DNA from: Paraphaeosphaeria minitans
Lineage: Eukaryota; Ascomycota; Dothideomycetes; Pleosporales; Didymosphaeriaceae
DNA: 64,000 nt
NCBI GenBank assembly: GCA_015832175.1
Contig: WJXW01000001.1
Location: 3,658,001-3,722,000 of the forward strand
Direction: 5' to 3'
The position numbers and the translations under genes are program-made. The notes under the pieces are model-generated. The model made no database searches, was not told the origin of the DNA, and was given only the letters and a program-made list of their open reading frames with translations. Below, piece by piece: positions 3,332-61,266 of this stretch (positions are counted from its first letter, which is position 1; each line of letters opens with the position of its first letter).

Positions 3332-3469
3332 GTTATAAGTCTAGCGCTTAGAACGTAGGACAATTCTCCCTACTTACTTAGTAACGCTTAAATTATTATA
3401 TAACACTTTATTTAGAACCTCTCTATAATATAACCCCCCTATTTCTAATTACAAAAATTATTAAAATAG

Positions 3470-9597: not shown

Positions 9598-9792
9598 TGT
9601 TAAAGTAAAACACTCACTTCTGTAATTCTTTCTAGATCTACTAATTCATATTACAGGATTCTTGCTAAGAGGCTTGTTTCTTTTATATATAGTATGCCCT
9701 TTTAGCATCCTTTCCTACAATTAGCTCTTTGTATTCTTTACAACTCTGCTCCTGAATATCCTATAATAGTTCGAGCCCTTTTTACCACAACA
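9598..9792 (+). repeat. 3' LTR of Copia-1 A
   Basis: A 195-bp LTR with TGTTAAAG...CACAACA ends. It keeps more CA dinucleotides than the 5' copy. After it the sequence passes straight into Gypsy-2 without repeating the left flank GAACC. Confidence 0.9.
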
Positions 9793-13920: not shown

Positions 13921-14376
13921 TATTAAATCCAAGAGGGTAGCTAGTCCTAAAGGGTTAAAGTTAGTTCTTAGGCAGGAGTACTTATAGAAGGTGGAAGGTC
14001 TTATTAATACAATAGTATCTTATAAAGTGTAATAAGTTAACAATTTAGTCTGCTAGAATCCAAACAATAGATTAATAAATAGATTAAACACAAGTATAAG
14101 AAGCTTATTCTTGCGTTCCTATATACTAAGTAGTCCTATATATCCCAGAATCCTATATATCCTAGAATCCCATACGTCCCAGAATCCTATACGTCCTAGA
14201 ATCCCGTGTGGGCGAGTCCCACGCGTCCTAGAGTTCCTGTATGGGCGAGGCCCGTGCGGTCCTTAGGACCCTTAGGACCTATAACCTATTATCTAACTGC
14301 TTAGTTAGCTAACTCTAGCAGACTAGTAGTTTAATAAGCTCGCGCCCTACTACGCGTACGTAGCTAGATCCTAATA
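13921..14376 (-). repeat. 3' LTR of Chromo-1 #2 (U3 type B)
   Basis: A 456-bp LTR. Positions 13921-14130 (R-U5, up to the TATA box) match all other Chromo-1 LTRs. The remaining 245 bases of U3 are unrelated to types A and C. The outer end reads TA instead of TG, a RIP change. Confidence 0.9.
14135..14202 (-). repeat. Four 17-bp tandem repeats in U3 type B
   Basis: Four units of the form CCTATACGTCCTAGAAT, separated only by transitions, stand directly upstream of the TATA box. The same four units are at 20399-20466 in the 5' LTR. Next to them lie a GGGCGAGTCCCACGC segment and a repeated TTAGGACC word (about 14262-14282). They are candidates for sequence-specific regulatory sites. Confidence 0.8.
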
Positions 14377-14392
14377 TTATCCTCCCCCTCTA
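14377..14392 (-). promoter_or_regulatory. Polypurine tract of Chromo-1 #2
   Basis: On the minus strand an AG-rich block containing GAGGGGGAGGATAA abuts the 3' LTR. Copies #3, #4 and #5 have similar blocks at the same place, as expected for the primer of plus-strand DNA synthesis. Confidence 0.6.
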
Positions 14393-14975
14393 AGCTTAAT
14401 ATCTTTATAAGTTAACTACTTATAAAGTTATTATCTTGTTCTATTTAATATCGCTATAGTTAAGCTAATCACCTTAAGAAAGACTATATTTTTATAATAG
14501 TTACCTATTTATACTGCGCTAAGAAGAAATATACTTATTATCTTTCTTTTTTACACTCTTAGTGTACTAACTACGTTAGATAAGGAAACTAGAAGTGTAA
14601 GCCTAAAAAGATCCCTTTACTAGATTATTTAAAAATAGATGCTAAAATAGAGAGGTTAGAAAAGTTAGAGGCTAAAGAGGAGGCGAAGCTCTATATTAAA
14701 GAAGAGCTAGCTAAGGTAGCTCTCCTTTACGCCTATTAGGTGTAAGAGAAGATAACACGCTTATATAATTAGTAAAAGAAATTATATTAGAAGGAATAAG
14801 AATTATTTAATTATAGTATAGGTACTATAGACAAGCTAGAAGCGCTTAAAGCGTAGAAGGAGTTAGTGTAGGCCACTACGTTAATAAATTCCAACGCGCT
14901 GTTAGGCGCTAAAATAATTAACTAGTCTATTTTATAGGCTAGCCCTTATACTAGTAGTAATTCCTAAGTGCGTCC
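14393..14975 (+). pseudogene. Antisense Cys-cluster coiled-coil frame, type B
   Basis: A plus-strand frame, opposite to gag-pol, is broken only by TAA and TAG. Six Cys or RIP-derived Tyr codons lie at 14506, 14515, 14536, 14563, 14572 and 14596, spaced CX2CX6CX8CX2CX7C. Three are still Cys (TGC or TGT); the others are TAT or TAC, the RIP product of Cys codons. After the cluster comes a long charged, heptad-like stretch (DAKIERLEKLEAKEEAKLY). The layout of zinc-cluster, short linker and coiled coil resembles fungal Zn2Cys6 regulators such as the Gal4 type. The start codon is not visible. The sequence outside the Cys is unrelated to types A and C. DNA binding and control of the element are inference. 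Confidence 0.6.
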
Positions 14976-14984
14976 TAGTTATTT

Positions 14985-20184: not shown

Positions 20185-20640
20185 TATTAAATCTAAGAGG
20201 GTAGTTAGTTCTAAAGGGTTAAAGTTAGTTCTTAGGTAGGAGTACTTATAGAAGGTAGAAGGTCTTATTAATACAATAGTATCTTACAAAGTATAATAAG
20301 TTAATAATTTAGTCTACTAGAATCTAAATAATAGATTAATAAATAGATTAAACATAAGTATAAGAAGCTTATTTTTGCGTTCCTATATACTAAGTAGTCC
20401 CACACATCCTAGAATCCTATATGTCCCAGAATCCTATACATCCTAGAATCCCATACATCCTAGAATCCCGTATAGGCGAGTCCCACGCGTCCCAGAGTTC
20501 CTGTACAGGCGAGGCCTGTGCGGTCCTTAGGACCCTTAGGACCCGTGACCTGTTATCTAACTGCTTAGTTAGCTAACTCTAGTGGACTAGTGGTTTAATA
20601 AGCTCGCGCCCCGCTGCGCGCACGCGGCTGGATCCTAATA
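20185..20640 (-). repeat. 5' LTR of Chromo-1 #2 (U3 type B)
   Basis: A 456-bp partner of 13921-14376, ending in GGATCCTAATA followed by the target duplication AGTAA. It has the four 17-bp units at 20399-20466. The two LTRs differ by transitions in the parts I compared. Confidence 0.9.
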
Positions 20641-21860: not shown

Positions 21861-22098
21861 TGTCCGTACAGTTTATTGTACAAATAGCACTAAGTGAAAT
21901 AGGGGCCTACCTATCTATAGGGACCCACACAAGGACCCACTACTTAGGTTAGCGCTAAGAGGTAGAGACTTTATAAGGTCCTTAGTGCCCCTTTGTACGA
22001 CAGACTAGACGTAATTAATTAAACCTACTTCTTACCCTTTGTACAATAGTATACTATTAACCCTCAAATGCTTAATTGCAGATTAAGCCAAACCTACA
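21861..22098 (-). repeat. LTR-238 solo LTR, reversed copy
   Basis: A 238-bp sequence TGTCCGTACAG...AACCTACA, the reverse complement of the copies at 36306-36543 and 48106-48343 and of identical length. It keeps many CA and TG dinucleotides, unlike its surroundings. Unlike the other two copies it has no visible 5-bp target duplication (ATATT on the left, CTAAT on the right). Confidence 0.8.
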
Positions 22099-22600
22099 CT
22101 AATTAGTAGTTAATTCTATTTAACTGCAAACTAGTAAGATCTAAAAACAGAGCCTCCTATAAGCTAGATACGTAGGCTCTATATTGTTACCTTTACTAGA
22201 GATTAAATTTTAGATTATATAATAAGCAGAAACAAAGTGCGCATATTTGTAAAAAGTTATATAATCTAGTCTAAGCTATTCTATAGAAAAGAAAGGAGAT
22301 AGTAAACCCCTTTATAACCCTAAAAAACACGTCGCACAATTAAACTAGCGATAACTAAACGCAAACAAGTCGCATAATTAAACTAGCAATAACTAAATAC
22401 AGACACGTCGCACAATAAAGAAAGATAATAACAATAACATAGCCTTAAGACTAGGAGACTTCCTCAAAGAACTATAACCTAAGGACGTCGCGCAATAATT
22501 AATACTACCTCCTTAGTAAAAAGACAAAGCAATATAGCTTTAATAAGTAGAAAAAGTAACAAACATTAAGGCTATTACCTTAAGAGGAGAGATTGTATAA
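22099..22600. other. Spacer with 38-bp tandem repeats
   Basis: Non-coding stretch between Gypsy-2 and Copia-2. It contains the tandem repeat at 22328-22420. An inverted pair AGAGCCTCCTATA / TAGGCTCTATA around 22150-22185 could form a hairpin. Any 5' LTR of Copia-2 should lie here or slightly to the right, but none could be identified. Confidence 0.4.
22328..22420 (+). repeat. 38-bp tandem repeat, 2.4 units
   Basis: Units start at 22328, 22366 and 22404 with CACGTCGCACAATTAAACTA, CAAGTCGCATAATTAAACTA and CACGTCGCACAATAAAG. A lone related word ACGTCGCGCAAT recurs at 22485-22496. The CG-containing core GTCGCAC survives, consistent with RIP acting mainly on CpA. Confidence 0.75.
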
Positions 22601-24507: not shown

Positions 24508-24919
24508 TATTAAATCCAAGAGGGTAGCTAGTCCTAAAGGGTTAAGGTTGGTTCTCGGGCAGGAGTACTTATAGAAGGTGGAAAGTCTTGTTAATACGTT
24601 AGTATCTTAATAAAGTGTAATAAGTTAACAATTTAGTCTACTAGAATCTAAACGATAGATTAATAAACAGATTAAACATAAGTATAGAGAGCCTATTCTT
24701 ACGTTCCTATATACTAAGGCTGCTCTGCTACTTAGTGCTACTAAGTAACTAAGCACCTTACGTAACCTATTCTACTACTTAGTGCTGCTAAGTAACTAAG
24801 CACATTATATAACCTAATCTAAGTTACTTAGCGTCTCTTTATTATATTTATAACCTTATTATTACCTTATTACACCTTTATAAGCGCCTAAGTCCTACGT
24901 TATTATCTAGTATGTAATA
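24508..24919 (-). repeat. 3' LTR of Chromo-1 #3 (U3 type A)
   Basis: A 412-bp LTR whose type A U3 matches 2012-2422 in reverse, including the two 47-bp units. The outer end starts TATTAAATCC, mutated from TGTTAAATCC. Confidence 0.9.
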
Positions 24920-24936
24920 TTATCCCCTCCCTTTCT
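24920..24936 (-). promoter_or_regulatory. Polypurine tract of Chromo-1 #3
   Basis: On the minus strand GAAAGGGAGGGGATAA directly precedes the 3' LTR. It corresponds in position to the AG-rich blocks of copies #2, #4 and #5. Confidence 0.6.
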
Positions 24937-24980
24937 ATTCTTTGTCCTAAAGAATTATACCTACTAACTGTAATTCTATA

Positions 24981-25416
24981 AAGCATTATTACAGCCTTAT
25001 CTCTACTATTAAAAACTACAGAGTAGTTATAGTGTTAAAGTGCTCCTTCTATAAGTTATATTCCTATATTTATAAAGTCTATGTTAGCTTAGGGAAGTGT
25101 AGTAAGTGTTAGAAATAATGCTTAAAATATAATATAGCTGTTACTAGAAATAAGTTCTTATAGTTAATTACTAAGAAAAAGAGATTAGAGGCGTAAATAT
25201 TAAAGACGTAAAAAGAATAGAATGTAGCGTTTAAAGCCCTACGCATAGCGTATATAAAAAGGAGTAGTTATTAAAATAATTAGCGTAGAATAAAAAGCAG
25301 ACTAGAGAGGTAATTACAGTAGAAAGTGCTACGCTAATAGAGTTAGAGGAAGATCTAGTTTAGCCTACTTAGCCTATAGGTCCTGTAGAGCTTAGCACGT
25401 CTATTTAGTTAGCAAT
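24981..25416 (+). pseudogene. Antisense Cys-cluster frame, type A, first part
   Basis: A plus-strand frame opposite to gag-pol. Cys or Tyr codons at 25041, 25050, 25071, 25098, 25107 and 25128 give CX2CX6CX8CX2CX6C, the exact spacing of fungal Zn2Cys6 clusters. Three are intact Cys and three are TAT. A Lys/Glu-rich helix-like segment follows (TKKKRLEAQILKTQKEQN). The reading frame shifts near 25255, probably by a small indel. At 25416 it is split by Copia-1 B (duplication GCAAT), and the last codons continue at 32752-32826. Its residues are unrelated to types B and C apart from the Cys spacing. Confidence 0.6.
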
Positions 25417-25611
25417 TGTTGTGGTAAAAAGGGCTCGAACTATCACAGGATATTCAGGAGCAGAGTTGTAAAGAATACAAATAGCTAATTGTAGAAAAGG
25501 ATGCTGAAAGGGCAGACTATATACAAAAGAAACGAGCCTCTTAGTAAGAATCCTGTGATATGAATTAGTAGATCTAGAAAGAATCACAGAAGTGAGTGTT
25601 TTACTTTAATA
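25417..25611 (-). repeat. 3' LTR of Copia-1 B
   Basis: A 195-bp LTR, TGTTGTGG...TTTAATA, reverse complement of 3137-3331. A 60-codon open frame on its minus strand (25405-25587) is read out of the LTR and its target site, so it is not a gene. Confidence 0.9.
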
Positions 25612-27330
25612 TACCCCCTAGATAATCGCTTAAAGCGGATCACCTATCCTAAAAAGTAATCTATAATTATCTAAATCCTTCCTAAAGATCTTTAAAAAAC
25701 TGTCTAAAGGCTATTTAAAGATTAAAAAACTATTAAAAATTGTTCTTCTAAATCTCCTTATCTTAAGAATAGCGATTCTATTACTCTCCTACTTATTATA
25801 ATAGTAAAGCAATCACTATTTATCTTTTAAATTATAAATCCTATCGTGAATCGTGTCTCAAATCTCTTCTTCTAGTAGGTTAGGAGCTTATAAGCGTGGC
25901 ATAAAGGCCTAGAGCGTAAACGCTTTTATTCTACTGTTCTTTTCACTTACTTCCTATTAACTGTGAGGTAATTTCCCCACTCTTACTAGCTAATAAGTAT
26001 AATAGGTAGGCGCGTTTTAATTAGAAAGGAGTAGTAGTAAGAGAAATAAGTAGTAAAGAAAGAGCGTATTTAGCGCTTAATAATTAGATAGGCGGTAGAG
26101 TATATAAGCCCTTTGCTAGCGCTTAATCTTCTCTCTTTAATCTTTTACTTTTAACGCTTTAACCTCCTATCTAATTTAAGCCTACTAGTTTAAGCCTTTA
26201 AATTCTACTACCTTATAGTAAGTTCTTTTCTTCTAATTATTACCTTACGCTCTTTTTATTATTTAGAGCTTTACTAACTCTTTTAGATATCTAATAACCT
26301 AGCTAAAGCACACGTAGTAAAGGCTGCAAAAGCTACTAAATAAAGCTCCTAATTCTCCTGCTAAGATCCTTTTACTCCTTCTATTTTACTAGTTCCTTTT
26401 ACCCTAGCTCTAGGCCCCTAGCGATCGCTTAGTGCTTTTAGGTAAGTAAGCTACTTAGGCTGCTTAAAAGGAGCTCTAGTAGGAAAGAGTAATAGACATT
26501 ATTATAATAACGCTTTAAGCTTAGGCAGGCGCTACTATACCTACTTTACCTACTCTTACACTACTATATATAGGGTTATTTTATTACTTTAGCTAATTTT
26601 ACTAATTATTTCTATAGCTAGCCGCATATTTAGACTCTAGCTATAGATTTTATCTACTATTAACTATTAGAGGGTGCTAATGTAAGCTTTTATTCTAAGA
26701 TTCTTTTTTAGTTTAGCTAATACTTTTTATAGAAGAGGCTAATTACTAAGCTATATAAGAAGGTTAAAGTGGCCTTATAAGGTCCTTTTTCTACTAGTAG
26801 TTAAGAGGAGTAAGCTTAGCATATAGCTACTATCCTACTCCCTCTCTCTTAGCTAATTCTTAGTAGAGGATAGGGTAATTACTTTCCTACTCTACCTATT
26901 AAGGAGTAGCGCAGTCGCAGCTAATACCCTAATTAAAATAGCTAAATAAGCAGCCTATTAGCTCTAAAGTAGAGTAGAAACTAAGTAAGTGCTTCTCCTC
27001 CTACTAATTAAAGGAGGAGAAGCTAGGGTAAGCTATTACCTACTACTAATTAAAAAAGAGGTAGAGGAGGTAGATAGGGTAAAGAATTACCTACTACAGA
27101 GAGGAGGAGAGGAGAAGGATAGGGAGAATCTCCTACTACTAATTATAGGGGAGATTCTCGCACCCCTATAATTAAGTAAAGGAGGAAAAGGGTCTATATA
27201 CTTATAGATAAGCTCTTTAATCTCTTTTTCCTTTAATTCCTATTCTTCCTCTAATCTTTTCTTTCTTTTCTTTTTCTTTTCTTGTTTCCTAGCTCTAAAT
27301 TAATAATTCTAGGTAGTTAATAGATTATTT
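25612..27330 (-). other. Copia-1 B 3' region with extra 0.63-kb segment
   Basis: Counterpart of 8591-9597 of copy A, but longer. The two copies match on both sides of the interval 26213-26838, which copy A lacks. Inside it a plus-strand frame beginning near 26276 (NSFRYLIT) runs about 400 bases with only TAA/TAG stops, coding for an Ala/Gln/Leu-rich stretch. This may be a captured host fragment or an antisense frame of the element, and I do not recognise it. The rest has the GGAGATTCTC-like words seen in copy A. Confidence 0.5.
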
Positions 27331-30300
27331 CTCTACTTACCTACTCTTATTCTGTAATTATTATACTTACATCTTACAAATTTAATAGCCTTTTAAATCT
27401 ATTAAACTGCTAATAAGTAAGAGCCTTTATAAGGCTATCTACTAGCATTTCGCTAGTTAGAAGATATTCTACTTAAAATAATCTTTTTATATGCTTTTAC
27501 TATAACTATATATTCTAAATATCTACATAGCGTAGTTAAGTAGTAATTCTTTTGTTCTTTCTAATTACTAAACAAATAGTTTAAAGATTATTATAATAGA
27601 CCTTCTATAAAAGTCCTAGATCTAGAGTAAGCTTAGTAAAGAATCTCTTAATTACTATAGCTTCTTTACTTATATATTTAAGCGCTAGAAGCTCTGCTTC
27701 TGTTATTAAAGTAGTGATTATGTTCTATTAAGCTACTTTCTATAGGATAGCTCCTCTAAATAATAGGATAATATATCTATAGAAAGATTGCCGTAATATT
27801 AGATTATTAGCGAAAAAGGTATCTCTATATATTAGCAGATTAGGTCTATTGTAGCCACTAAAGACTATAGCCTACTATCTAGTTTAATAGAGGTAAAAGA
27901 TTACACAATTAATAGTAGTAAAGTGTTCTTTACTTAGATTTATTAGAAAGTGTGATAGCTTTAACACTATAAAGGCTATATCTTAGCGTAGCATAATTGC
28001 TGTATAAAGAGCTAATCCCACCTCTTCTTAAAAGAGTTTTATTTCTTAAGGAGTGGCTTCTCCTGTGCTTGGAACAAGATCTTTTACTAATAGAGGTGTA
28101 GTAGGGAAGCTCCTAGAGTTTAAAAGGTTAAACTTTTTTGTGATCTTATTAATGTAGGTATTATAGACTAGAGAAATTAATCTTACTTCTCTGTCCTTAA
28201 TTACTTAAACACCTAGGAACTACTCTACTAGTCCTTTTAATTTAATCTTGTATTTATTCGCGATTTTCTGCTAAAAATCTAGGGCTTCTTTCTCTTTACT
28301 CTTATAATTGCGAAGAAGAATGTTGTTAATATAAAATAGAATAATAATACTTTAATCACTATTAAAGAAAAGGCATAGCTCTTTTAGCAAAGCTAAGAGT
28401 CTATAAGATTAAAGTAATCCTGTAAATTCCTTATACTAAAGAAGTAGTAAATCTCTTAAGCTATATAAAGCTTAATTTAATCTTACACACTTTCCTAGCT
28501 TTTTAAAACTATTAGGTAATTTATAAGTTACTAGATTAGTGGCTATAATAAGAGTATTTAGAAACGCTTCTACTATATTAAATTATAAGATATCTAGATT
28601 AAATTCTACTGCCAGAGCTACAGCTAATTAAAAAGATCTTACTACTAGGGTAGTAGCATAGGTAGAGTAGAGAGTATTCTTTCTCTAAAAATCTCCTTTT
28701 ACAATAATTTAAGCTTTGCACTTTTTAAAGTATCTATTTTAATTAAACTTATAGGTAAAGACCCACTTTAAAGGGAGCAGTTGCTTTAACACCTCTAATT
28801 ATTTAATCTCTATCTAGGTATCTTTATCTTATAAAGTTAAGATCTCCTTATAAGCAGTAAGGAGGAATAGCTTCCTATATAGATAATTATAAAAGTGTTT
28901 CTATAGGGTTAGCTCTAGTGTAAGCTCGTCTCTGTGAGTCTAAGTTGTATAAAACGCTCTAGGCGCCTTTTTAAGTATAGAAGTGAATACTATTATATTT
29001 AGTTTAATATATTCTTCTTACTTAGACTAGGCCTCTACTACTCCTAGTATAAATGTGTGCTCTAATATTATATTAAGATCACTTTAAAGATAATTAGCAA
29101 TTAGTGTATAAGCACCTAGCTTCTACCTACCCCCTAGCTAATTATCTTAATTATTTTGCTTTCTTAATCTTTGTAATAGCAGATAGTAATTTATTAGTTA
29201 GTTAATTTCTAGTGCTTTACTATAATTTTACCTACTTATTCTACTTACCTCTAAATAGATCTGCCTTCGCCTTTAGCGCGCTAGTAGGTTATCTACTTTA
29301 TCTAGCGTAATTAAGTTATCTGCGCTAGGTTAATTAGTAACCTAATTAGTTTCTACTAATAAATAGGGTATTAAATCCCTAGATTCTAGTAGGCTAGCTC
29401 TCTTAGTAGTGTTCTGGTAGCTACTAGATATTTTTTAATTACTTAATAGATTACTCCTAAGATTACCTAGCTCTAGTATCTAATTAGGGGTTATAAGTCC
29501 TGTGCTTCCTTTCCTACTTAAGCGAATTCTTAGCTACTAGCTAGCTAAGCCTATAGCTTACTTAGTAGTAGGTACTTTAAGTTCCTAATTACTTAGCTAG
29601 CCTACTTCGCTTTTAATCACCTAAGGGTTATCTATAGGTCTAGTAGTAGTTCTTATATACTTGTTTATTTTAGAAAGAATGTTAAGAGCGTCTTTATACG
29701 CTTCTTCTAGATTGTTTAGCTCTCCTTCTTAGAAGCTTTTTACTATTTTTAACACTTCTATCTTTAGAATAGATTGTTCCTCTAATCCTTTATAGAATAA
29801 GGACTTATTAAACCTTACATTTCGTGTGGTAACTACCTAATTAAGCTAAGAAATCTATATTTAGTAGATATTTGAAGCTTTATAGCTTACTAGGTATCTA
29901 ATATAGCCCCTAGGATTCACTTTAAATCCTCTTCTATCTCGCCTAGCTACACGCTCCTAATCTAAAGAGTAAGCTTAGCAGCTATAGGCGTAGACAGTAC
30001 TCTAGTTTAGATAAAGATTAGCTATCCTATATTATATTTTTACTAGTTTAAAATAATAAAAATATTATCTAAACTAAGCATCTAACGTTTTATTAGGTGA
30101 TTAATAGCCTAATACTAGGCTAGGAATTATTCCTTAGAGCTAGTATACCGCTTATATAATTTTAGGCTAGAGATTTAATAGCAGATTTGCGCTGATTTAC
30201 ATTTTAATTACTTTTATTATAAGCTCCTAGCCTACTCTTTCTATAGCGCTATTAGGCTTATGCGTATAGGGCAGTAGTCTACTAATTATTATCTCTTTCT

Positions 30301-32440
30301 AATTAGCCTAAAATTTATACTAGGATCTCCCTCTCTATAGAAGTGTTGCTGTATTATTATCCTAGTAGATTTTTGTGATTTAAAGCTCGTATTTTGTATT
30401 AATAAGAGCTAAGAAATTCTACTACACTTTTATTATTTTAGAAAGCGTCTTTATTCTAAGATTAAAAACATAAGGTTTCTTACTAAAATCTTCTTTAATT
30501 AGTAAAACCTAGTTTTCTCTATTTTAAGCAGTAGGCATATTAAATAGATCTTAAAATAATAAGTAAAATAGCCTAAGTAATTATTCTCTAGGTCTTCTAA
30601 AGATTACCTAAGTTATATATGTAGTAGCACAGTGCTTACAATCCTTTTTTAACATTTTAGTAATCTTTATACCTTAGGCTGCAGTTACTAGAGCTTATAG
30701 GGCTCTACTTCCTATATGCCCTACTTAAAGGTGCTAGAGGTCCTTAGAATTTAATCTCTTAATATTAACCTAGGATAATCCTTTAGTAGTCACACTTATA
30801 ATAGTTAAACAAGAGTAGATTAGCTTATATTATAGGAAAGTAAAGTTATATTTATATCTTAGGTCTACTAAGATAATACTTTATTCTAGGCTTTTAATCC
30901 TAAGAGTGTAATCTAAACTAAGGTATTAAATCTTTACTTTCTTTAAAAGAGCTTCTAATATAATATTTATATAAAAGCCTTCTACTACTTTTACTTCTTA
31001 GAGCAGTAGATCTTTTATAAATTTCTTATTTTTCCTATATAAAGCGTTCTTAATTAGTCTATTACTAATTCCTAAGATTAGGAGGCTTTGTGTACCTGCC
31101 TCTACACTCTTATTTAATAATTAAAACGTCCTAGGAATAAGTCTTTTGTAATTATTAACTAGGTAAACTGCTGTAGCACTGTCTAGTATTATACATTCTA
31201 ATAGAGAATAAGCGTTAGAATGTAGAGTAGAGTAGACACCTAATACTCTATTTTCTGTAGGCAGATTAAATAGGTTTAGTAGAGTAGTAGTAATACTACT
31301 AGGATACTTAATAGTCTTAGTAGAGGATTATTTCTTATTTTATCCTGCCTTTATAATCGCATTATAAAGGTTCAACTACTTAGGCTGCTTAAGTTAATTA
31401 AGAATCTTTAATTTTTCTTTATTAGTAAGATTAAATAACAATATTCTATCCTAGGGTAATCTAGCTATTGCGGTTTAAAGTCTTTAGCACTCTATTAGTT
31501 TCTACCTATAAGTATAGGGCTTATAGGGACAGTTTAGTTGTTTCTTTGTCTAATTAGACAAACTAGAACTATTAGAGTTAGTAGATTATCTTAATAATCT
31601 ATTAAAAGTGGCAAATACTCTACTTATTTTATTAAAACTAGATTAGATTAAATACTCCTAAATAAGCGCTAAAAATACCTTCCCTAGATTATCTAGCGTG
31701 ATCTAATTCTGTCCTAGCGTCTTATCCTAGATTTAGCTATTAGTTTATTAAATAGGCCTAATTTAGTGCTATACGCGTAGTAATTATATTAAGGAAATCT
31801 TAGGTAGTAAGCGGTCCGCTAATTTCGCTAATTAAGTAGGTCTTTGCTTTTTAATAGAGGAGCTGCCACTCTTTAAACTAGGTTTTAGGACTTTATCTTA
31901 CCTACTTAGCCTTTTTAAGATAAGCGTAGTATAAAGCTTAAATATTATTCTGTATAGCTCTTTTATTTAGTGCGAGATCTTCCTTTAAGAGTTAAATTAG
32001 AGACTAAAGCGTAGTTTAGCGTGTATTAACTAGAGTAATTATAGCAGGAGTAAGTAGATTAGGCAATACTATAGCATTTACCTAAGTCTAGAGATTCTAT
32101 ATCTTAGTATAGTCTACTTGCTAGTCTAAAACTACTGCTCTATATTCTGCTATTTATAAAGGAAAGCTCTCCTTATCTATTTTATACTTAGTAAGCTCTG
32201 CTTTATATAATTAAATACTTGCTATAGAGGCTGTATCTGTAATTAGTAATAGTTTCTATAGAAGCGGAGGTTGTTTTGGCTTTACGTAATTAATTGCTAG
32301 AGCGTTAATCGCCTCTAGGTTAACTTAGTTCTAGATTCCTTTTAAGTTTACTTAGAATTAAAGCTAGACAAACTAGTAAGGCTAGCTAGCGCGATTAACA
32401 AGCTATACTTCTGCTATTTTAATAATTTTTGTAATTAGAA
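27331..32440 (-). pseudogene. Copia-1 B gag-pol, RIP-inactivated
   Basis: Same domain order as copy A, read on the minus strand: Gag at the right end (about 32440-31500), protease near 31170, integrase about 30750-30150, reverse transcriptase about 29050-28130, RNase H to about 27350. The catalytic motif reads Y-I-N-N at 28322-28333, here with AAC codons, so both Asp were again lost by G to A. Stops are TAA and TAG throughout. Confidence 0.8.
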
Positions 32441-32551
32441 ATAGAGGGGTTGTATTATAGAGAGGTTCTAAATAAAGTGTTATATAATAATTTAAATGTT
32501 ACTAAGTAGCTAGGGAGAATTATCTTACGTTCTAAACGCTAGGCTTATAAC

Positions 32552-32746
32552 TGTTGTAGTAAAAAGGGCTTAAACTATTATAGGATATTTAGGAGCAGAG
32601 TTGTAAAGAATATAAATAGCTAATTATAGGAAAGGATGCCGAAAGGGCAGACTATATACAAAAGAAACAAGCCTCTTGGCAAGAATCCTGTGATATGAAT
32701 TAGTGGATCCAGAAAGAATCACGGAAGTGAGTGTTTTACTTTAACA
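32552..32746 (-). repeat. 5' LTR of Copia-1 B
   Basis: A 195-bp LTR ending TTTAACA, followed by the target duplication GCAAT. It keeps more CA and TG dinucleotides than the internal region. Confidence 0.9.
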
Positions 32747-32751
32747 GCAAT

Positions 32752-35800: not shown

Positions 35801-38269
35801 ATCTATAAGTTATGTATTATTAACTAAAGTAATCCTAAGACTAACTTATACTTAGATCCTAGTAAGATATCTAAGGTAAGTTCCTTTCTATATCCTTAGA
35901 CTGTTATTATAGTAGTAACCTCCTAGTATATTTAAAGTGTCTTAGGCATTAGGGATCTATTTGCAATATAGATAATATAGGGTACTTCTTTCTTTAATAT
36001 TATAAGTCCTACTTGTCTTACTATCTAATAAGATATAAAGTTCCTTCCTACTCCTAAGTCTATAAGAGCTTAAGCCTATATTCCTTTAAGCTATACTAGT
36101 AGCTTAACTAATACTATACTTACTATAGCATTTAATTTTATAAAGGCGTTTTCTTATCTAAGTTTAGGCCTAAAAAAGACATCTATTTATATAGGTTATA
36201 GTTAAGTTCTAGTGCCTAGTATGCGTTTCTAAGTATCTGCTTCTGTTATTATTCTTAAGTACATAGTTTATATAGATTGTTTTCTTCTTTCTATAAGGAT
36301 GTTCTTGTTGGTTTGGCTCAATCTGCAATTAAGCATTTAAGGGTTAATAGTATACTATCGTGCAAAGGGTGAGAAGTAGGTTTAATTAATTACGTCTTGT
36401 CTATCGTACAAAGGGGCACTGAGGGCTTTATGAAGTCTCTGCCTCTTAGCGCTGACCTAAGTAGTGGGTCCTTGTGTGGGTCCCTACAGGTAGGCAGGCC
36501 CCCACTTCACCTAGTGCTACTTATACGATAAACTGTACAGACAGTTCTACTGTTTTTCCTCTTACAGTCTTTACTATTTCTATGTACTAGTTAAATTAGT
36601 AGTTCTATAATTACTTCTCACATAGGGCAGTTTACAAAGCCGTCTAAACATTTAGCTATATAGTAGTATTTATAGTCTTAGTTTAGACACGTATACTAGT
36701 ATAGTTATATATAGTCTCTATTAATAAGCATATTACAGTATTCGTTACCCTTTAGCGTAAGGTAAGGAAAGTATTTTACTTATTATTTATTCTAGAGGTG
36801 TTTATTGTAAGCTGTAATAGGGTAGTCTATCTATATCTATCTATAGCGTAGTTTCTTTTTAAGTTATTTCTTATTCTTTTCTTTCTCCGCCTTATATTAT
36901 ACGTATGTTAGTTCTTCGCAATACATCTATATACAGAATTAGTATATAGGATTTTAGTGGTCTAAGTAGTACTTTAGTACGTAGTCTAACTCCTTATTTT
37001 TATAGGGTCGCATCCCTTTTAGTGCCTAGTAGGGTTTTATATAGTCCTAAATATTTAGTTTATACTTAGGTAATATAGGGTTGTCTTCTTCCCGCCTACT
37101 TTATAGGTGAGAAGTAGGAGATTTTAATATCTCTTCTACGTCTTCTATATTATAGTATACGTTAGAGTTGTCTTCTAGATTTTTGTATAATTATAAGTTA
37201 AGTAAATCTAATTACTTACTTTATTCTAGTGTAATGCGTTAGTAACTAAATAGTGTTATAATAACTTCTTATTCCTTATTAAGTTTTTAGTCCTTAATAG
37301 TTAGCATATTTAACTTAGTTTAATAGACTTTGTTCTTTAATCTATAGTTCCTAGCTATATAGCCTAGTTTACTATATATAAAGCATTTATAGGTCTTAGT
37401 TATTAGTTATTAACTTTTATTAGAGACACGTTTATTAGGCTACTTAGGGCCTATTCTTCCTCTTTTTCCTTTATCTATATAGTTAAACTAGATATCTTTT
37501 ATTAGTTTGTATCTCTAGTAGTTCCTTAGCTATTACTTTTAGACGATTCTAATAAGGTTCTTATAAACTATTTTTACTAGTTGTCTAAAGCTTATTGCCC
37601 TAGGGTTTTAGTAGAGCTCCTATTATAATAAAAACTATTCTTTATTAATTCTAATAGTTTCTTTGTATAGTTTTTTAAGGTTAGTAATTCGCGCACTACT
37701 ATATAAGAGTTCCTTATATAGTTTCTATTTAAGTCCTTATTTGTATATGTCTTAAAGAGATTTATTATCCTAGTTAAGTTACATAGCGTACCTATAAAAC
37801 TTAGCTATATACTTAGCTACTAATTATTTCTAAGTTATAGTCTAAATCTTTGCTTTTATAATAGAGTCTTTATTAGTAATTCTAAAGTGTTGTCTAAGGC
37901 ATTTCTTAAAGTTATTATAATTCTTAATAATATTAACTACATTAGTGTACTTATTTACGTAATTATTGTTATTATTGTTATAGTCTATTCCTAGGTACTT
38001 TCTAAAGTAGCATTAGATCTATAATCCTACATCTCCTCACATATATATTACTACAAAGATAACCTTTTTCTTATCTTTAAGAGGTTTGTCTAAGTTAAAG
38101 AAGTAGAGGTCTAACTAGAGAATCTAGACATTAGTTTAAGATTGTTTACTAAAGTAGAGATTAGGTTTATACACCTTACTACTATCCTTTATAGAAGTAA
38201 TCTTAGCAGCACCTAAAGCTGTAGAAGAGGTAAGAGTTCGTAAAGTACTTATATTAAGGGTGTTTAAGA
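32830..38269 (-). pseudogene. Chromo-1 #3 gag-pol, RIP-inactivated
   Basis: Colinear with copies #2, #4 and #5. The chromodomain end lies near 32878-32945, integrase near 33400-33960, and the reverse transcriptase catalytic site reads Y-I-D-N at 35005-35016. The zinc knuckle is near 37355-37400 and Gag ends at 38269 by the 5' LTR. A 238-bp solo LTR interrupts it at 36306-36543, between protease and zinc knuckle. This is one of the most heavily mutated copies. Confidence 0.8.
36306..36543 (+). repeat. LTR-238 solo LTR in Chromo-1 #3
   Basis: A 238-bp sequence TGTTGG...CAGACA flanked by the perfect duplication GTTCT (36301-36305 and 36544-36548). Copy #2 has the uninterrupted target (near 18463-18475), which proves the insertion. 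The TG/CA ends and 5-bp duplication identify a solo LTR left by recombination of a full element. It is almost free of RIP. Confidence 0.88.
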
Positions 38270-38681
38270 TGTTAAATCTAAAAAGGTAGCTAGTCCTAAA
38301 GGATTAAGGTTAGTTCTTAGGTAGGAGTACTTATAGAAGATAGAAAGTCTTATTAATATATTAGTATCTTAATAAAGTATAATAAGTTAATAATTTAGTC
38401 TGCTAGAATTTAAATAATAGATTAATAAATAGATTAAACATAAGTATAGAGAGCCTATCTTTACGTTCCTATATACTAAGGCTGCTCCGCTGCTTAGTGC
38501 TACTAAGTAACTAAGCACCTTACGTAACCTACTCTACTACTTAGTGCCGCTAAGTAACTAAGCACATTACGTGACCTAATCTAAGTTACTTAGCGTCTCT
38601 TTATTACATTCGTAAGCCTATTATCGCCTTATCACACCTTTATAAGCGCCCAAGTCCCACGTTGTTATCTGGTACGTAATA
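38270..38681 (-). repeat. 5' LTR of Chromo-1 #3 (U3 type A)
   Basis: A 412-bp LTR from TGTTAAATC to ACGTAATA, followed by the target duplication TAGAC. It carries the two 47-bp units with fewer RIP changes than its partner at 24508-24919. Confidence 0.9.
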
Positions 38682-38686
38682 TAGAC

Positions 38687-47500: not shown

Positions 47501-48105
47501 TAGAGTAAGATAATTAGGTAATATAGATCTCTCTAGTAAAATATGCGTATAATAATAGTAAACATTTAGTAATAGGGTACACACTGTACTAAGTGTGCGT
47601 TAGATATAATCCCTTTAACCTAATCTAGCCTAATATACCGCTAAGTAGCGGGAAAAGCCTAAGGGGCTACTAAATAGTATTAAGATTAATAAAAATACGC
47701 GTAAATATAAGAAAGAAGCTGTAGGTAGTATAGAAGTACTAAAAATCTATCTCTAATAAGAAGAGAACCCCTTTATAACTTAACAAAGGTAATAAGGTAT
47801 AGGTTTTAAGTAGGAATCTAAAGTCTATACAACTAAACAAGAAGATAGACTAGAAATTCCTAGGCCCTAGAGTAGTAGATAAGTGTATTAGCTCTCTACC
47901 TACAGCCTACTAAGTAAACCTACCTAAATTGGGTAAAGTTTATCTAGTATTCTATCCTTCCCTACTAGAACTATACAAACTACGTAAGAAACCACCCTAC
48001 TAATAACTGCTAATTAAAGATACATTGCGCTAATATAGCAATAATATGTACAAAGTAGACTATATTATTAACAAATAATAAAATAAGTTAGGATAATAGA
48101 AATAC
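44501..48105 (+). pseudogene. Chromo-2 pol, RIP-inactivated
   Basis: The protease relic reads NTLVDSALALNLL near 44577-44615. Reverse transcriptase lies at about 45270-45740, with FIKKKDSTLCLYIDYQGLN and a catalytic site Y-L-D-N at 45614-45625 (second Asp lost by G to A). RNase H lies near 46080-46450. The integrase has a Cys pair NCKQCQQATYKRHKP near 47050-47090 and a core with NRQIERQNQTLKQYLRIF near 47440-47495. The first half of the chromodomain ends at 48105. Stops are TAA and TAG. Confidence 0.75.
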
Positions 48106-48343
48106 TGTAGGTTTGGCTTAATCTGCAATTAAGCATTTGAGGGTTAATAGTATACTATCGTGCAAAGGGTAAGAAGTAGGTTTAATTAATTACGTCTTGT
48201 CTATCGTACAAAGGGGCACTAAGGGCTTTATGAAGTCTCTGCCTCTTAGCGCTGACCTAAGTAGTGGGTCCTTGTGCGGGTCCCTATAGGTAGGCAGGCC
48301 CCCACTTCACCCAGTGCTACTTGTACGATAAACTGTACGGACA
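48106..48343 (+). repeat. LTR-238 solo LTR inside the Chromo-2 chromodomain
   Basis: A 238-bp sequence TGTAGG...ACGGACA with the perfect duplication AATAC (48101-48105 and 48344-48348). It splits the chromodomain of Chromo-2. It is nearly free of RIP and close to the copy at 36306-36543, the differences seen being mostly transitions. Confidence 0.9.
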
Positions 48344-48615
48344 AATACCTTATTAAATAGAGCAGATATAATCTAGAAGAAAACTCTTAGGAATCTACTA
48401 TATTAATTAGTAGAAATGCGCTTAAAGAGTTCTAGAAAAAGCTTAAGATATTCTTAAGAAGGTTAATAACTACACTTCTAGAGGCAAAGAAGAGAGGTTG
48501 TAAACAACCTCCCTTAAAGGGGAAAACTAGCAAATGCTAAGAACCTATATAAAAATATTAGTCTAAGTTAGACCTACTTAGCACAAAATGTCCTAATTTA
48601 GTATAATATACGAAT
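48344..48615 (+). pseudogene. Chromo-2 chromodomain, second half
   Basis: Continues pol after the solo LTR with KYLIK-SRYNLEEN-, where the two dashes are TAG codons at positions that are Trp in chromodomains (TGG to TAG). The basic tail runs to about 48600. It ends next to the ATTAA target duplication of Chromo-1 #4. Confidence 0.65.
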
Positions 48616-49031: not shown

Positions 49032-50498
49032 TTTTAAACACTGTTAATATAAGTACTTTACAAACTCCTACCTTTTCTATAGCTTTAGGTGCTGCTAAGA
49101 TTACTCTTATAAAGAATAGTAGTAAGGCGCATAAACCTAATCTCTACTTTAGTGAACAATTTTAAACTAACGTCTAGATTCTTTAGTTAGACCTCTACTT
49201 CTTTAACTTAGATAAATCCCTTAAAAATAAGAAAAAGGTTATCTTTGCAGTAATATATATGCAAAGAGATATAGAATTATAGATCTATTCCTACCTTAAA
49301 AAGTACCTAGGAATAGACTATAATAATAACAACGATAATTACGCAAATAAACACACTAATATAGTTAACATTATTAAAGATTATAATAACTTTAAGAAAT
49401 GCCTTAAACAACTTTTTAGGATTAGTAATAAGAACTCTATTACAAAAGCAAAGATTTAGACTATAACTTAGAAATAATTAGTAGCTAAGTATATAGCTAA
49501 GTTTTATAGGTACACTATATAGCTTAACTAGGATAATAAATCTCTTTAGGATATATATAAATAAGGACTTAAATAGAAAATACGTAAGAAACTCCTATGT
49601 AGTAGTGCACATATTACTAACCTTAAGGAACTATATAAAGAAACTATTAGGATTAATAGAGAATAGTTTTTACTATAATAAGAGCTCTACTAAAACCTTA
49701 GGGTAATAAGCTTTAGATAACTAGTAACAGTAGTTTATAAGAACCCTGTTAGAATTGTCTAAAAGGAACAGCGAAGGAACTACTAAAGATACGAACTAAT
49801 AAAAGATGTCTAGTTTAACTATATAGGCAAAGGAACAGGAGGAAAAATAGGCCCTAAATAGCCTAATAAACGCGTCTCTAATAAAAGTTAATAACTAATA
49901 ACTAAGACCTGTAAATGCTTTATATGTGGTAAACTAGGCTATATAGCTAGGAACTATAAATTAAAGAATAAAGTCTATTAAACTAAGTTAAATGTACTAA
50001 CTATTAAGGACTAAGAACCTAATAAGGAATAAAAAGTTATTATAACACTATTTAGTCACTAACGTATTACACTAGAATAAAATAAGTTATTAGATTTACC
50101 TAACTTATAATTATATAAAGATCTAGAAGACAACTCTAACGTATACTATAATATAGAAGACGTAGAAGAGATACTAAGATCTCCTACTCCTTACCTATAA
50201 AGTAGGCGAGAAGAAGATAACTCTATGTTACCTAAGTATAAATTAAATGTTTAGGACTACATAGAACCCTACTAGGCACTAAAGGGATGTAACCCTATAA
50301 AAATAAGGAGTTAGACTACGTACTAAAGTACTACCTAGACTACTAAAATCCTACACACTAATTATATATATAGATATATTGCAAAGAACTAACATATGCA
50401 TAACATAAGGCAGAAAAAGAAGAAAATAAGAAATAACCTAGAAAGAAACTACGCTATAGGTAAATGTAGATAGACTACCCTATTACAGCCTACAATAA
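49032..50498 (+). pseudogene. Chromo-1 #4 gag, RIP-inactivated
   Basis: Gag region with a zinc knuckle at 49916-49957 that reads CX2CX4-Tyr-X4-Tyr: two Cys survive, while the His and last Cys are now Tyr. It is followed by an acidic linker (NIEDVEEILRSPTP near 50150-50190). It ends at AATAA, where copy #5 is inserted. The match to 2423-3136 is nearly continuous. Confidence 0.75.
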
Positions 50499-50909
50499 TG
50501 TTAAATCCAAGAGGGTAGCTAGTCCTAAAGGGTTAAGGTTGGTTCTCGGGCAGGAGTACTTACGGAAGGTGGAAGGTCTTGTTAATACAATAGTATCTTG
50601 CGAAGTGTAACAAGTTAATAATTTGGTCTGCTAGAATCTAAACAATAGATTAATAAACAGATTAAACATAAGTATAGAGAGCCTATCCTTGCGTTCCTAT
50701 ATACTTTAAGCAATTAGTAGACTAATCGCTCTAACCAAACTAATTAAGCACTAATTAGTCGCTTAGTATATTAAGTGCTTAGTCTAATTAGTTGTCTTAG
50801 CGCTCTAATCACACTAATTAGGTCACGTGACCTTTTGCGCTGTGCCACTCAAATAACAAATGTAGATATATATAAAGATCTTAGGAGGCCTAGCCTTTAG
50901 ATCTTAATA
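50499..50909 (-). repeat. 3' LTR of Chromo-1 #5 (U3 type C)
   Basis: A 411-bp LTR starting TGTTAAATCC and ending ATCTTAATA. It contains the perfect 12-bp palindrome GGTCACGTGACC at 50821-50832 and several CTAATTAG palindromes. Confidence 0.92.
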
Positions 50910-50926
50910 TTATCTCCCTCCTTACT
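50910..50926 (-). promoter_or_regulatory. Polypurine tract of Chromo-1 #5
   Basis: On the minus strand AAGGAGGGAGATAA precedes the 3' LTR. Copy #4 has GAGGAGGGAAATAA at the same place (61296-61309). Confidence 0.6.
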
Positions 50927-50952: not shown

Positions 50953-51570
50953 ATGTCTTATGCCTAGTTATAACTAGAGCTCGCCCTGCGTTATAAGTAG
51001 CGTTAGCTTACCTATATTATGCCCTAACAACCTTCTAAGTCCAGCACTACCTATTGCTATTACCTAACTAATTTTATTAACTCCTTTAGCGAAGTTATAG
51101 TTAAGAAATACTTAATATGTATAAAACATAACTATGTTTGTAAAGTTCACGTTTAGTCTAGAAGATATAGGGAATATATTTATTAAGGTTAACGTTACGA
51201 TGTGCGCGTTTTAGAGTCTAAGTTTAAGTATTTGTTAGCGGAGAAAGAGAAATTGCGTGTACAGATAAAAGAGTTAAGAGAAACGCAGGAGACTGCGTTT
51301 AAGGCCTATAAAGAGGCGTTAAAGAAGTTACAGGTTACACGCGCGTACAAAGATTAGTTGCGTTAGTAAATAGACTTACTAGATAAGCGTACTAAGGATG
51401 CAATAGTAGTTAAGGAGAAGAATATTAAGGAGGCTAAATCTTATAAGGCTGTTAATCTAGTAGTTAACGAGACTCCTTTAGGTTCCTTCTTGTCCCTTAC
51501 AATATAGAGCGCTTTCGAGGATTTCCTATTAGAATTCTAGGATAATCTAGTGCCTTTACTGTCTTAGGTA
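50953..51570 (+). pseudogene. Antisense Zn2Cys6-like coiled-coil frame, type C
   Basis: Best copy of the antisense frame. An ATG at 50953 lies 44 bases from the U3 edge of the 3' LTR and the frame is read away from it, opposite to gag-pol. About 200 codons follow, interrupted only by TAA/TAG. Six cluster positions at 51109, 51118, 51139, 51166, 51175 and 51196 are spaced CX2CX6CX8CX2CX6C; two are still Cys and four are Tyr codons. Copy #4 still has Cys at the fourth position, where this copy has Tyr, which supports the ancestral reading. A long Lys/Glu-rich coiled-coil-like segment follows (ESKFKYLLAEKEKLRVQIK). This resembles a small fungal zinc-cluster protein; the function is unproven. Confidence 0.65.
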
Positions 51571-51599: not shown

Positions 51600-54500
51600 G
51601 TAGAATTCTTTAATCTTTTGTTAATAGTTTCCTAGGTAGTTCTCTAGTTCCTAAGTGTTTTCGCTGTGTGGGTAACCTTTCTACTTAATAAAGTACGCGT
51701 TGTTATGCTAATTATATTCTAGAATTCTTTTAACCTCAAATTCATTTTCTTCCTTAGTTCTGTAGTAGAAGGCGGTTCCAACTAGTGTATCAGGGTCTGC
51801 TAGTTCTAGTAGTAATACGTAGAATACTAGGTGTATCTTTGCATCTGGCAGTAGTTCCAACTTATAGTTTACTAGTGATATTTGCTTAGAAATATAAAAT
51901 AGTCTAACCTTAATATAATCTAGTTTCTTATATTTTTTCTTCTAAGTTTAAAGGTTCTTTGTAAGCAGATATACTTTATCCCCCTTCTTTAGCTAAGGTG
52001 CTATTTTTTGTTTTTAATTTTAGTATAAAATTAATTACTACTAGGCTTTCTCAAGATTTTCTTAGAGTTATTAGTGTATTTTCTTTATATTTTCTGCTAT
52101 ATCTATAGCTTCTTTTGCTTTAATTGTTGTAGGAAATTGTTAGTTAAAGAGATGTGGGTGTCTTCTATAGTTTGCATAGAATAGTGTATGTCCTAATACT
52201 GCTAATACTTTGTTATTATAGGCTAACTGTGCTATAGGTAGTAATAAAACCTAGTTATTCTTCTAACTGTTACAGTAGATGCGTAGGTACGTTTCCATAG
52301 TTTGGTTCGTACGTTCTGTCTGTCTGTCTGTTTATAGATAGTAAGCTGTTAATAGCTTTTGTTTCGTTCTAAGCAGTGCTATAAGCGTTGTCTAATAATT
52401 TAACGTGAAGAGCTTGTCTCTGTCGCTAATAATTATTTTTAGGATTCTGTAGTGTCTAATTAGTTGGTTTAGGATAAGAAAAGCAAGTTCCTTTGCTGTT
52501 ATTCTTTTAAGACATAGAATAAGCTCGATATACTTAGTTAGTTAGTAGACTACTACTAGTATGCTGTTGTATTTGATTCCTATTGTTAGATCCTTAGAGT
52601 TTAGAATTCCTGTAACAAAATCCATAGCAATATCTTCCTATAGTGCTGTTGGTATTCTAATTGCTTACATCTCTCTATATTTAAGATGTGTGCTGTGTTT
52701 GTTTCTCTAGCATTCTACACATTTATAAATATAAGTTATTACAGCTTCCTTAATTCCTTTAAAGGTGTAATTCCTTTAGATAAGTTCTATTGTTTTCGTG
52801 ATGCCCAAGTGTCTGTACATAGGGTTATTATAGTATTATTAGATAATCTCAGTCTGTAGATGTTCTAGAACTTCTTAGTTAATTACTAAAAGTTAATTTA
52901 GTTCTACTATTAGTTCTAGAGATCTATCTTTGGCTTTACAAAGGATTACAGAGAAGGTTTTTACCTTTTCCCCTACTAGATTACTTTGTTAGCTAAGAGC
53001 GTCTACTCTGCCATTTTCTTTCCTAGCTATATAGATTATTTTAAACTTATACTACCCTATAGTTTACAACCATCTTTGTTATTATAGCGTAAGTTCTTTT
53101 ATCGTCGTGAACCTTAGAAGGTTCTTATAATCTGTGTAGATTTCTAGCGTTAAGTAACTAAGCGCGTAAATCCTCTAGTGCTTTAAGGCTTTAATAATAG
53201 CGTAGAGTTCTTTATTATGTACGTTGTATTGTGTTTTAGCGTTATTAAATTTGCATAAGTAATAGGCAATTAGGTACTATTTGCTATTACATTCTTATTT
53301 AGCGTAGGCGCCTAGCGCAAGATCGCTAGTGTCTGTTTTAAAGCGTAGTAGTTTATCGCCTCTAAAATAAATAAGGACAGGTTCTATAATACATACTATC
53401 TTAAGGAGTTAGAATGACATTCCGCACTTGTCTATCTATTTAAAGGGTACATCCTTCTTTGTAAGATTTATTAAAGGTATTGTAACCTTTGCGTAATCTT
53501 AGATAAATTATCAGTTGAATCTATAGAATCCTAAGAATTCTTGGATATTCTTGGCTATCTTTAGTATTAGCCAGTTCTTAATGCATTTAATTTTACTTAG
53601 TGCTATCTCAATTCCTTCTATAGTAACGATATGTCCTAGGAATTTAAGTTATTTAACGTTAAACTTACATTTCTTAAGTTTAATGCGAAGGCATACTTTG
53701 TCTAGTGCTTCTAGTACTATTTGTATATACTTAGTGTGGTCTAATTCGTTTTTAGAAAAGACAAGGATATTATCTATATATATAATAACAAATATGTCTA
53801 GATGTTCGCAGAGTACGTTGTTAATAAGTGCTATAAAAGCTACTAGTGCGTTTATAAGTCTAAAAGGCATAACCTTGTATTTAAATAGTCTATAGCGTAA
53901 TTAAAACGCTATTTTCTATTCTTCACCTTTCTTAATTTGTATAAAGTGGTAACCGTCTCTTAGATCTATTATTGTAAATATCTTGGCTCAAGATAGTCAA
54001 TCTCGTAGCTCTACAATATTTAGTAGTGGATATTAGTTCTTTATTATTATATTGTTAAGTTATTAGTAGTTAACGCATAGTCTGTCTAATTCATCCTTTT
54101 TCTTAACAAACATAAAAGGGCTTACTACTAGTAACTTTAATAGTTATATATATCCTTTCTTGAGGTTTGTCTTAATAAAATCACATTCTTTAAGGAGTTC
54201 TTCTCCTGTCTTACTATATAGTAGTCTAAAGGGTGGCGTCTTCCCTTCTTCTAGGTCTATTATAAGATCCTAGGGTCGATGTTCTAGTAGGTTTGCTTTT
54301 CCTTCCTTTTCTATAAACATATATGTCCATTTCCTGTACTCTCTTAGTAAGGTAAGGGGTGTGCTATTGTCCTCCTTCTCGCGCTTCTTAACCTAGTAGT
54401 TCCTACCAGCGTCTACTAAGGTGTGCTTCTATTTTTTAACTATTTGTCACAGTATTATATTGTTAATAACTCCCTTATCTACTATTATTTTTAGTTAATA

Positions 54501-60649: not shown

Positions 60650-61266
60650 ACCTAAGACAGTAAAGGCACTAGATTATCCTAGAATTCTAATAGGAAATCC
60701 TTAAAAGCGCTCTATGTCGTAGGGGATAAGAAGGGACCTAAAGAAGTCTTATTAACTACTAGATTAATAGTCTTATAAGATTTAGCCTTTTTAATATTCT
60801 TTTCTTTAACTGCTATTACATTCTTAGCACGCTTATCTAGTAAGTCTATTAACTAACGTAACTAATCTTTGCGTGTACGTGTAACTTATAATTTCTCTAA
60901 CGCCTCCTTATAGGCCTTAAACGTAGCCTTCTGCGTTTTTTTTAACTTTTTTATCTATATACGCAATTTCTTTTTCTCTACTAATAAACGCTTAAACTTA
61001 GACTCTAAAACGCGTATATTATAATATTAACCTTAATAAATATATTCTTTACATTTTCTAGACTAAACGTGAACTTTGTAAACGTAGTTATATTTTGTAT
61101 ATATTAAGTATTTCTTAATTATAACTTCGCTAAAGGAGTTAATAAAATTAGTTAGGTAATAGTAATAGGTAGTGCTAGACTTAGAACGTTATTTAGGTAT
61201 AATATAAGTAAGCTAACGCTATTTATAATGCGGGATAAGCTCTAGTTATAACTAGGCGTAAGATAT
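60650..61266 (-). pseudogene. Antisense frame, type C, second copy
   Basis: Minus-strand frame of Chromo-1 #4, homologous to 50953-51570. The start codon at 61264-61266 is ATA in place of ATG, a G to A change. The six cluster positions lie at 61110 down to 61021, with the same CX2CX6CX8CX2CX6C spacing; only the fourth is still Cys (61051-61053), the rest are Tyr. A Lys-rich segment (LESKFKRLLVEKKKLRI) follows. It is more decayed than the copy in #5. Confidence 0.55.

What the first reader, a model, noticed from the sequence alone, without database searches (positions are those of the whole stretch)
50953..51570. Chromovirus encodes an antisense Zn2Cys6-like coiled-coil protein
Seen: on the strand opposite to gag-pol, between the chromodomain and the 3' LTR, a frame of about 200 codons starts 44 bases from U3 and has only TAA/TAG breaks. 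Six Cys/Tyr positions have the spacing CX2CX6CX8CX2CX6C, followed by a Lys/Glu-rich coiled-coil-like stretch. Copy #4 (60650-61266) has Cys where #5 has Tyr at the fourth position. Known: fungal Zn2Cys6 regulators use CX2CX6CX5-12CX2CX6-8C followed by a dimerising coiled coil, and antisense frames exist in some plant Ty3/gypsy elements. Inference: the element carries its own regulator.
Basis: partly seen in the sequence, partly recalled or inferred. Interest (0 to 1): 0.9.

Follow-up and report, generated by a model that had tools for sequence, protein, structure and literature searches.

The report
Antisense zinc-cluster gene in fungal retrotransposons
Fungal jumping genes in this window carry, backwards next to their tail, a small gene for a protein shaped like a fungal DNA-binding regulator, and that gene seems to be exchanged between element families together with its neighbouring promoter region.

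Summary
The genome is Paraphaeosphaeria minitans. The RIP-mutated frame is a conserved antisense gene. An un-mutated copy elsewhere in the genome has an intact 170-aa ORF with exactly CX2CX6CX8CX2CX6C, all six cysteines, beside an intact chromodomain. A profile of 23 relatives matches the frame in 31 of 31 type-A copies. RIP-blind transversions show purifying selection in type C. In two predicted structures all 18 PDB matches at E<=10 are Zn2Cys6 DNA-binding domains, none significant alone; Pfam Zn_clus is not reached. The window holds three diverged versions (A, B, C), each beside its own U3, while the TATA motif, R-U5 and pol are shared. Type B is RIP-blind 98-100% identical between elements with different pol ends, so U3 plus antisense gene moved as a cassette. 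Best reading: a dimeric DNA-binding regulator of its own LTR; target and sign of regulation are inferred. Antisense genes in such elements are known (brtn, Retand TRP28); this fold and the cassette linkage I did not find in the library searched.

The parts
51019..51567 (+). antisense gene, type A (RIPed), homology-defined limits, 182 codons plus stop
   Evidence: profile of relatives matches 31 of 31 copies; start and stop
51109..51198 (+). six-cysteine cluster of type A (codons 53-82), CX2CX6CX8CX2CX6C
   Evidence: Cys/Tyr in 31 of 31 copies at each position; Cys in relatives
51214..51438 (+). long helix / coiled coil of type A (approximate, carried over from the models)
   Evidence: AlphaFold2 helices; heptad signal
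51600..51737 (-). chromodomain at the end of pol, element #5
   Evidence: Pfam Chromo E 1.2e-4, under its cut-off because of stops read as X; SH3_Tf2-1 7e-9 beside it
50706..50912 (-). U3 of the 3' LTR, type A, with its own direct and inverted repeats
50497..50705 (-). TATA motif and R-U5 part of the 3' LTR, shared by types A, B and C
60652..61200 (-). antisense gene of window copy #4, type A
   Evidence: 87% DNA identity, no gaps; frame
14407..14967 (+). antisense gene, type B (RIPed); six-cysteine cluster at 14506-14598, last spacing X7
   Evidence: intact counterpart L083; homologous to A/C
14128..14376 (-). U3 of type B with 17-nt-spaced repeats
24957..25416 (+). antisense gene, type C, cut by another transposable element after 25416; six-cysteine cluster at 25041-25130
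   Evidence: intact counterpart L081
24716..24920 (-). U3 of type C with two 47-nt repeats

Best explanation
Ty3/gypsy chromoviruses of this fungus carry an accessory gene antisense to gag-pol, between the chromodomain and the 3' LTR. It encodes a protein of about 170-190 aa with an N-terminal six-cysteine cluster of GAL4 (Zn2Cys6) type, a short linker and a long coiled coil (sequence shown, fold predicted). It most likely works as a dimeric DNA-binding regulator made from an antisense transcript starting in the 3' LTR, binding repeats in its own U3 and tuning sense transcription of its own LTR type (all inferred). The gene and the U3 upstream of the sense TATA motif form one cassette that is exchanged between elements with different pol (shown), probably by template switching during reverse transcription (inferred). 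The window copies are RIP-killed.
For: Intact antisense ORFs with all six Cys in un-mutated copies of type C (L081) and type B (L083). Relatives: 22 proteins at E<=0.01, itself included; six Cys invariant in 20 of 20 of A3. A profile of A2 matches 31 of 31 A and 20 of 20 C copies in this frame. Stops of A: 13 of 16 columns align with Q/W/R in at least one relative; of B: 16 of 16 codons. Transversions: 31 of 61 distinct ones synonymous against 168 of 1020 possible, p 7e-10. Fold: 10 of 10 and 8 of 8 PDB matches at E<=10 are Zn2Cys6 domains. Gene and U3 type agree in 30 of 30 A and 21 of 21 C places; cassette exchange; U3 repeats.
Confidence: 0.55

Rival explanations
1. A real antisense protein that does not bind DNA: the cysteine cluster and coiled coil serve assembly, RNA handling, nuclear import or escape from silencing.
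For: Pfam Zn_clus and the recalled PROSITE pattern fail for the A/C family; the long helix dominates the models.
Against: All 18 structure matches at E<=10 are Zn2Cys6 DNA-binding domains; the type-B protein is nearest to Zn_clus (14.9 of 21 bits).
Confidence: 0.25
2. The protein has lost importance; antisense transcription itself (double-stranded RNA or interference) is what matters.
For: Discussed for plant elements in PMC7264820; overlapping convergent genes would give paired RNA.
Against: Third-position bias of transversions and invariant Cys show selection on the protein.
Confidence: 0.1
3. A host Zn2Cys6 gene captured by the element, with no use to it.
For: Zn2Cys6 regulators are abundant in fungi (recalled).
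Against: Present in hundreds of candidate places and three diverged versions in one genome, with selection and exchange together with U3.
Confidence: 0.06
4. A chance open frame in RIPed DNA.
For: Stop numbers alone differ little between frames; stop types are uninformative; a 178-aa ORF in another frame overlaps the real one in L081.
Against: Intact ORFs and relatives, profile match to this frame, transversion test.
Confidence: 0.01

Closest known systems
brtn, the antisense gene of Boty-like Ty3/gypsy elements of Botrytis cinerea (Zhao et al. 2011, Virology; seen only as a citation)
   Same: Antisense additional gene in a fungal gypsy element with a chromodomain, placed between pol and 3' LTR according to PMC7264820
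   Different: Sequence and domain of BRTN not available here, so homology is untested; it may prove to be a relative
Retand TRP28 and Grande gene23 antisense ORFs of plants (PMC11963269 passages; PMC7264820)
   Same: Antisense ORF between pol and 3' LTR, suspected DNA-binding or nuclear regulator
   Different: Other domain (TRP28), non-chromovirus plant lineage in the case of Retand, no U3 linkage mentioned in the passages seen
Fungal Zn2Cys6 regulators (GAL4, PPR1, Put3, Leu3, Hap1, Pho7)
   Same: Cysteine order and spacing, short linker, coiled coil, predicted fold
   Different: About 170-190 aa, element-borne and antisense; under the Pfam cut-off
HTLV-1 HBZ (mentioned passages; details recalled)
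   Same: Antisense coiled-coil nuclear regulator expressed from the 3' side of a retroelement
   Different: bZIP, no zinc cluster; retrovirus
Podospora crapaud LTR subfamilies (PMC10787394, passages)
   Same: Subfamilies differ in the 5' half of the LTR while R-U5 is shared; template switching suggested
   Different: The word antisense does not occur in that paper; no linked gene in the passages seen

Membership tests
Zn2Cys6 binuclear cluster (Pfam PF00172) | Six cysteines spaced CX2CX6CX5-12CX2CX6-8C | tested here: met
   20 of 24 proteins tested; the other four are P0006 (one extra residue, six Cys kept), P0014 (N-truncated), P0001 and P0023 (Tyr)
Zn2Cys6 binuclear cluster (Pfam PF00172) | Score above Pfam's curated cut-off | tested here: not met
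   Best 14.9 of 21 bits (L083); 4 of 23 A2 members listed, best E 0.13; none for L081
Zn2Cys6 binuclear cluster (Pfam PF00172) | PROSITE-type pattern with basic residue between Cys 2 and 3 (pattern recalled) | tested here: inconclusive
   Met by the type-B protein, by none of the 23 A2 members
Zn2Cys6 binuclear cluster (Pfam PF00172) | Two-helix zinc-cluster fold | tested here: inconclusive
Zn2Cys6 binuclear cluster (Pfam PF00172) | Zinc and DNA binding | not testable with these tools
   -
[quoted passage not shown]
   30 of 30 A, 30 of 30 B and 20 of 22 C places lie beside the pol end or U3 as expected (one C place lacks the pol end in reach, L081 lacks U3); intact in L081 and L083
brtn family | Sequence similarity to BRTN | not testable with these tools
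   Paper and sequence not held
Chromovirus | Chromodomain at the end of pol | tested here: met
   Chromo E 1.3e-17 (L081) and 1.1e-19 (L083); 1.2e-4 in RIPed A

The most novel reading that the evidence does not exclude
The cassette works like the immunity region of lambdoid phages (recalled analogy): an antisense regulator and its cognate operator repeats in U3 are swapped as a unit, so that elements with the same pol become heteroimmune and escape repression by resident copies. Chromovirus families would then diversify through exchangeable self-repression systems.
Probability: 0.2. Interest if true: 0.85.

Novelty: new variant of a known kind. Interest (0 to 1): 0.64.

Why it matters
Antisense genes of LTR retrotransposons have been described without a determined function (PMC7264820). 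Here one has a recognisable predicted fold, selection on the protein and a linked candidate target. That turns the question whether these genes regulate their element into a simple binding and reporter test. The swap of gene plus U3 between elements with different pol suggests how families may escape shared regulation, and could bear on LTR diversity reported in other fungi.

Tried and rejected
Stop counts and stop types as evidence: rejected. Direct A-to-B comparison of RIPed frames: inconclusive, other frame pairs scored as high. The A/C profile found none of 30 RIPed B copies, profile-profile comparison gave E 0.034 at best for B, and mapping B stops onto A/C relatives showed no clear excess (4 of 13 columns; 52 of 256 residues against 485 of 3062); B was settled only with its un-mutated protein. 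The transversion test for B is uninformative (3 of 14 synonymous, p 0.41). First protein search, one RIPed copy: no hit. Relatives in viral and prokaryote contigs: none. PDB sequence searches: nothing significant; LAC9 at E 0.2 is second of 10 for type B, behind PRP42 at 0.016, and no zinc-cluster protein among 17 for the A3 profile. Antisense TATATAAA box: 13 of 31. CGG/CCG pairs in the un-mutated U3 of B: no array. Heptad signal: shuffles reach it in under 5% for 17 of 21 proteins tested, more for four. VIA-align compared only 14 chains.

Literature: searches listed no paper whose title or shown abstract describes a Zn2Cys6-like antisense protein of a fungal element; only the top rows of each list were seen, and the library lacks most subscription papers. 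Seen: PMC7264820 parts 1-2 of 3; passages only of PMC3538342, PMC10787394, PMC8365987, PMC4227169, PMC5987419, PMC3248453 and PMC11963269; Zhao 2011 only as title in reference lists.

Full report
What was checked. The window lies in a 47.45-Mb genome of 30 contigs. The un-mutated relative found later is listed as Paraphaeosphaeria minitans PMIN01_12119 on a contig of 1,603,724 bases, the length of contig C15 here, so the genome is P. minitans. The window is heavily RIPed: TpA/ApT 1.82, against 0.73-0.75 in the two un-mutated antisense loci used below, and it has no ORF of 120 aa or more.

The frame. The + strand frame at 50953 exists as described. Thirty genome loci (window copy #5 among them) and window copy #4 align over it almost without gaps. 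Its stops are the fewest of six frames, but not by much, and the absence of TGA is ordinary here, so those two arguments carry little. The six Cys/Tyr positions carry more: each is Cys or Tyr in 31 of 31 copies, and Cys/Tyr-only columns form the pattern in this frame alone.

Un-mutated copies. A search with five A and five B copies (of 31 and 30) found one relative among 7993 scored candidates: P0001, 116 aa, E 3e-28, from a 665-base contig. P0001 against the genome gave 150 scored places of 349 candidates, one of them without a stop, on C15. There (L081, GC 50%) the antisense frame is an intact ORF of 170 aa with CX2CX6CX8CX2CX6C, all six cysteines, beside an intact chromodomain; the next 500 codons of pol are open too. 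The adjoining U3 was not detected. A search with this protein gave 22 proteins at E<=0.01, itself included, 44-100% identical; its UniRef name begins 'Zn(2)-C6 fungal-type doma' (cut off). Whether the others lie antisense in elements was not seen. In the 20 proteins of alignment A3 all six cysteines are invariant. P0001 (Tyr at two), P0014 (N-truncated) and P0023 (Tyr at one) were left out of A3; all 23 are in A2.

Is the window frame this gene? A profile of A2 (which contains P0001, found with A and B copies) matched the antisense frame of 31 of 31 A copies (best 1.4e-56, median 5e-46) and 20 of 20 C copies. Matches in other frames: one A copy at E 2.2 and one C copy at 7e-8, probably the copy with a one-base deletion. 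No B copy matched. hhalign gave E 2e-45 for this frame of A and nothing for the other five. Thirteen of 16 stop columns of type A align with Gln, Trp or Arg in at least one of 20 relatives; 196 of 312 residues there are Q/W/R against 533 of 3464 overall. By homology the gene starts at codon 23 (51019), not at 50953, and ends at 51565-51567, overlapping the pol stop.

Selection. RIP makes transitions only: relative to L081, 2603 of 2934 transitions in the 20 C copies run in the RIP direction. Transversions are therefore a RIP-blind record. Between L081 and these copies they fall 102/30/373 on codon positions 1/2/3 (pooled); 28 of 54 distinct sites, and 21 of 27 sites shared by three or more copies, are third positions; 31 of 61 distinct transversions are synonymous against 168 of 1020 possible (p 7e-10). 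Copies share ancestry, so the p-value overstates independence. At the six cysteine codons 119 of 120 cells in the C copies are Cys or Tyr, one Ser. For type B the same test has too few transversions (3 of 14 synonymous, p 0.41).

Three versions. The window holds three types of 3' region on elements whose pol and R-U5 are about 90% alike at DNA level: A (copies #4 and #5), B (13920-20640) and C (LTRs 24510-24920 and 38272-38682). A and C belong to one protein family. Type B has the same motif with one more residue before the last cysteine. An un-mutated B copy on C19 (L083) has an intact 186-aa ORF with all six cysteines beside a chromodomain. At 16 of 16 codons where RIPed B copies carry stops, the intact copy has Gln, Arg or Trp; its cysteine codons read Cys or Tyr in 30 of 30 copies. 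With this protein B is homologous to A/C: hhalign probability 96.7%, E 3.2e-10 over 146 columns.

A cassette. Between types, DNA similarity stops at the motif TTCCTATATACT on the LTR side (exact in the A, B and C LTRs) and near the pol stop on the other side. Gene type and adjacent U3 type agree in 30 of 30 A and 21 of 21 C places; the 30 of 30 for B is not independent, because its query included the U3. With purine/pyrimidine coding, which RIP cannot change, window B and L083 are 0.98-1.00 identical over U3 and gene, then 0.85-0.86 over the next 200 bases and 0.95 over the last 100 (pol end). L081 and window A are 0.75-0.78 over most of the gene (0.61-0.72 where they are unrelated) and 0.97-1.00 in the pol end. 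So one cassette sits on different pol ends, and different genes sit on the same pol end. Template switching, with strong-stop DNA jumping at R and a return in pol, would explain this (inferred; a similar process is discussed for crapaud, PMC10787394 passages). Each U3 has its own repeats; in un-mutated B four 24-nt copies and an inverted copy lie between the sense TATA motif and the antisense start.

How it works. Shown: coding, antisense position, six cysteines, selection (type C), cassette exchange. Predicted: fold, coiled coil. Inferred: zinc and DNA binding, dimer, antisense promoter in the 3' LTR, own U3 as target, regulation of sense transcription. The geometry (regulator gene beside a repeat-bearing U3, reading away from the sense promoter) resembles divergent regulator/operator units. 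Linkage alone could be mechanical, because gene and U3 are neighbours and lie between the same two stretches of homology.

Compared with what is known. [quoted passage not shown] PMC8365987 passages). Retand antisense proteins carry TRP28, thought to bind DNA (PMC11963269 passages). Whether BRTN is a relative could not be tested. New here, as far as the searches named under Tried and rejected show: a Zn2Cys6-like antisense protein, conserved and diversified, that travels with the U3.

Noticed in passing
3136-9792 and 25417-32747: Two copies (91-92% identical pieces) of another, unidentified transposable element of roughly 6.5-7 kb, both inserted into chromovirus copies; the second one cuts the type-C antisense gene.
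   Followed up: no
21857-22104, 36306-36543, 48100-48347: A repeat of about 240 bp present three times (90-96% identical); the copy at 36306 interrupts a chromovirus pol. Perhaps a small non-autonomous element.
   Followed up: no
L083:914-1201: The C19 element ends in a chromodomain whose DNA is only 0.85-0.86 RY-identical to the window B pol end over 200 bases, i.e. another pol lineage sharing cassette B.
   Followed up: partly
L081:1-330 and L082:1-1500: On C15 an un-mutated stretch of chromovirus pol (500 open codons and the chromodomain) survives in a genome with more than a hundred RIPed relatives, next to a missing U3. Why it escaped RIP is unknown.
   Followed up: partly
50822-50833: A perfect 12-bp palindrome GGTCACGTGACC in the type-A U3 of the window copy (seen); conservation among copies not tested.
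   Followed up: no
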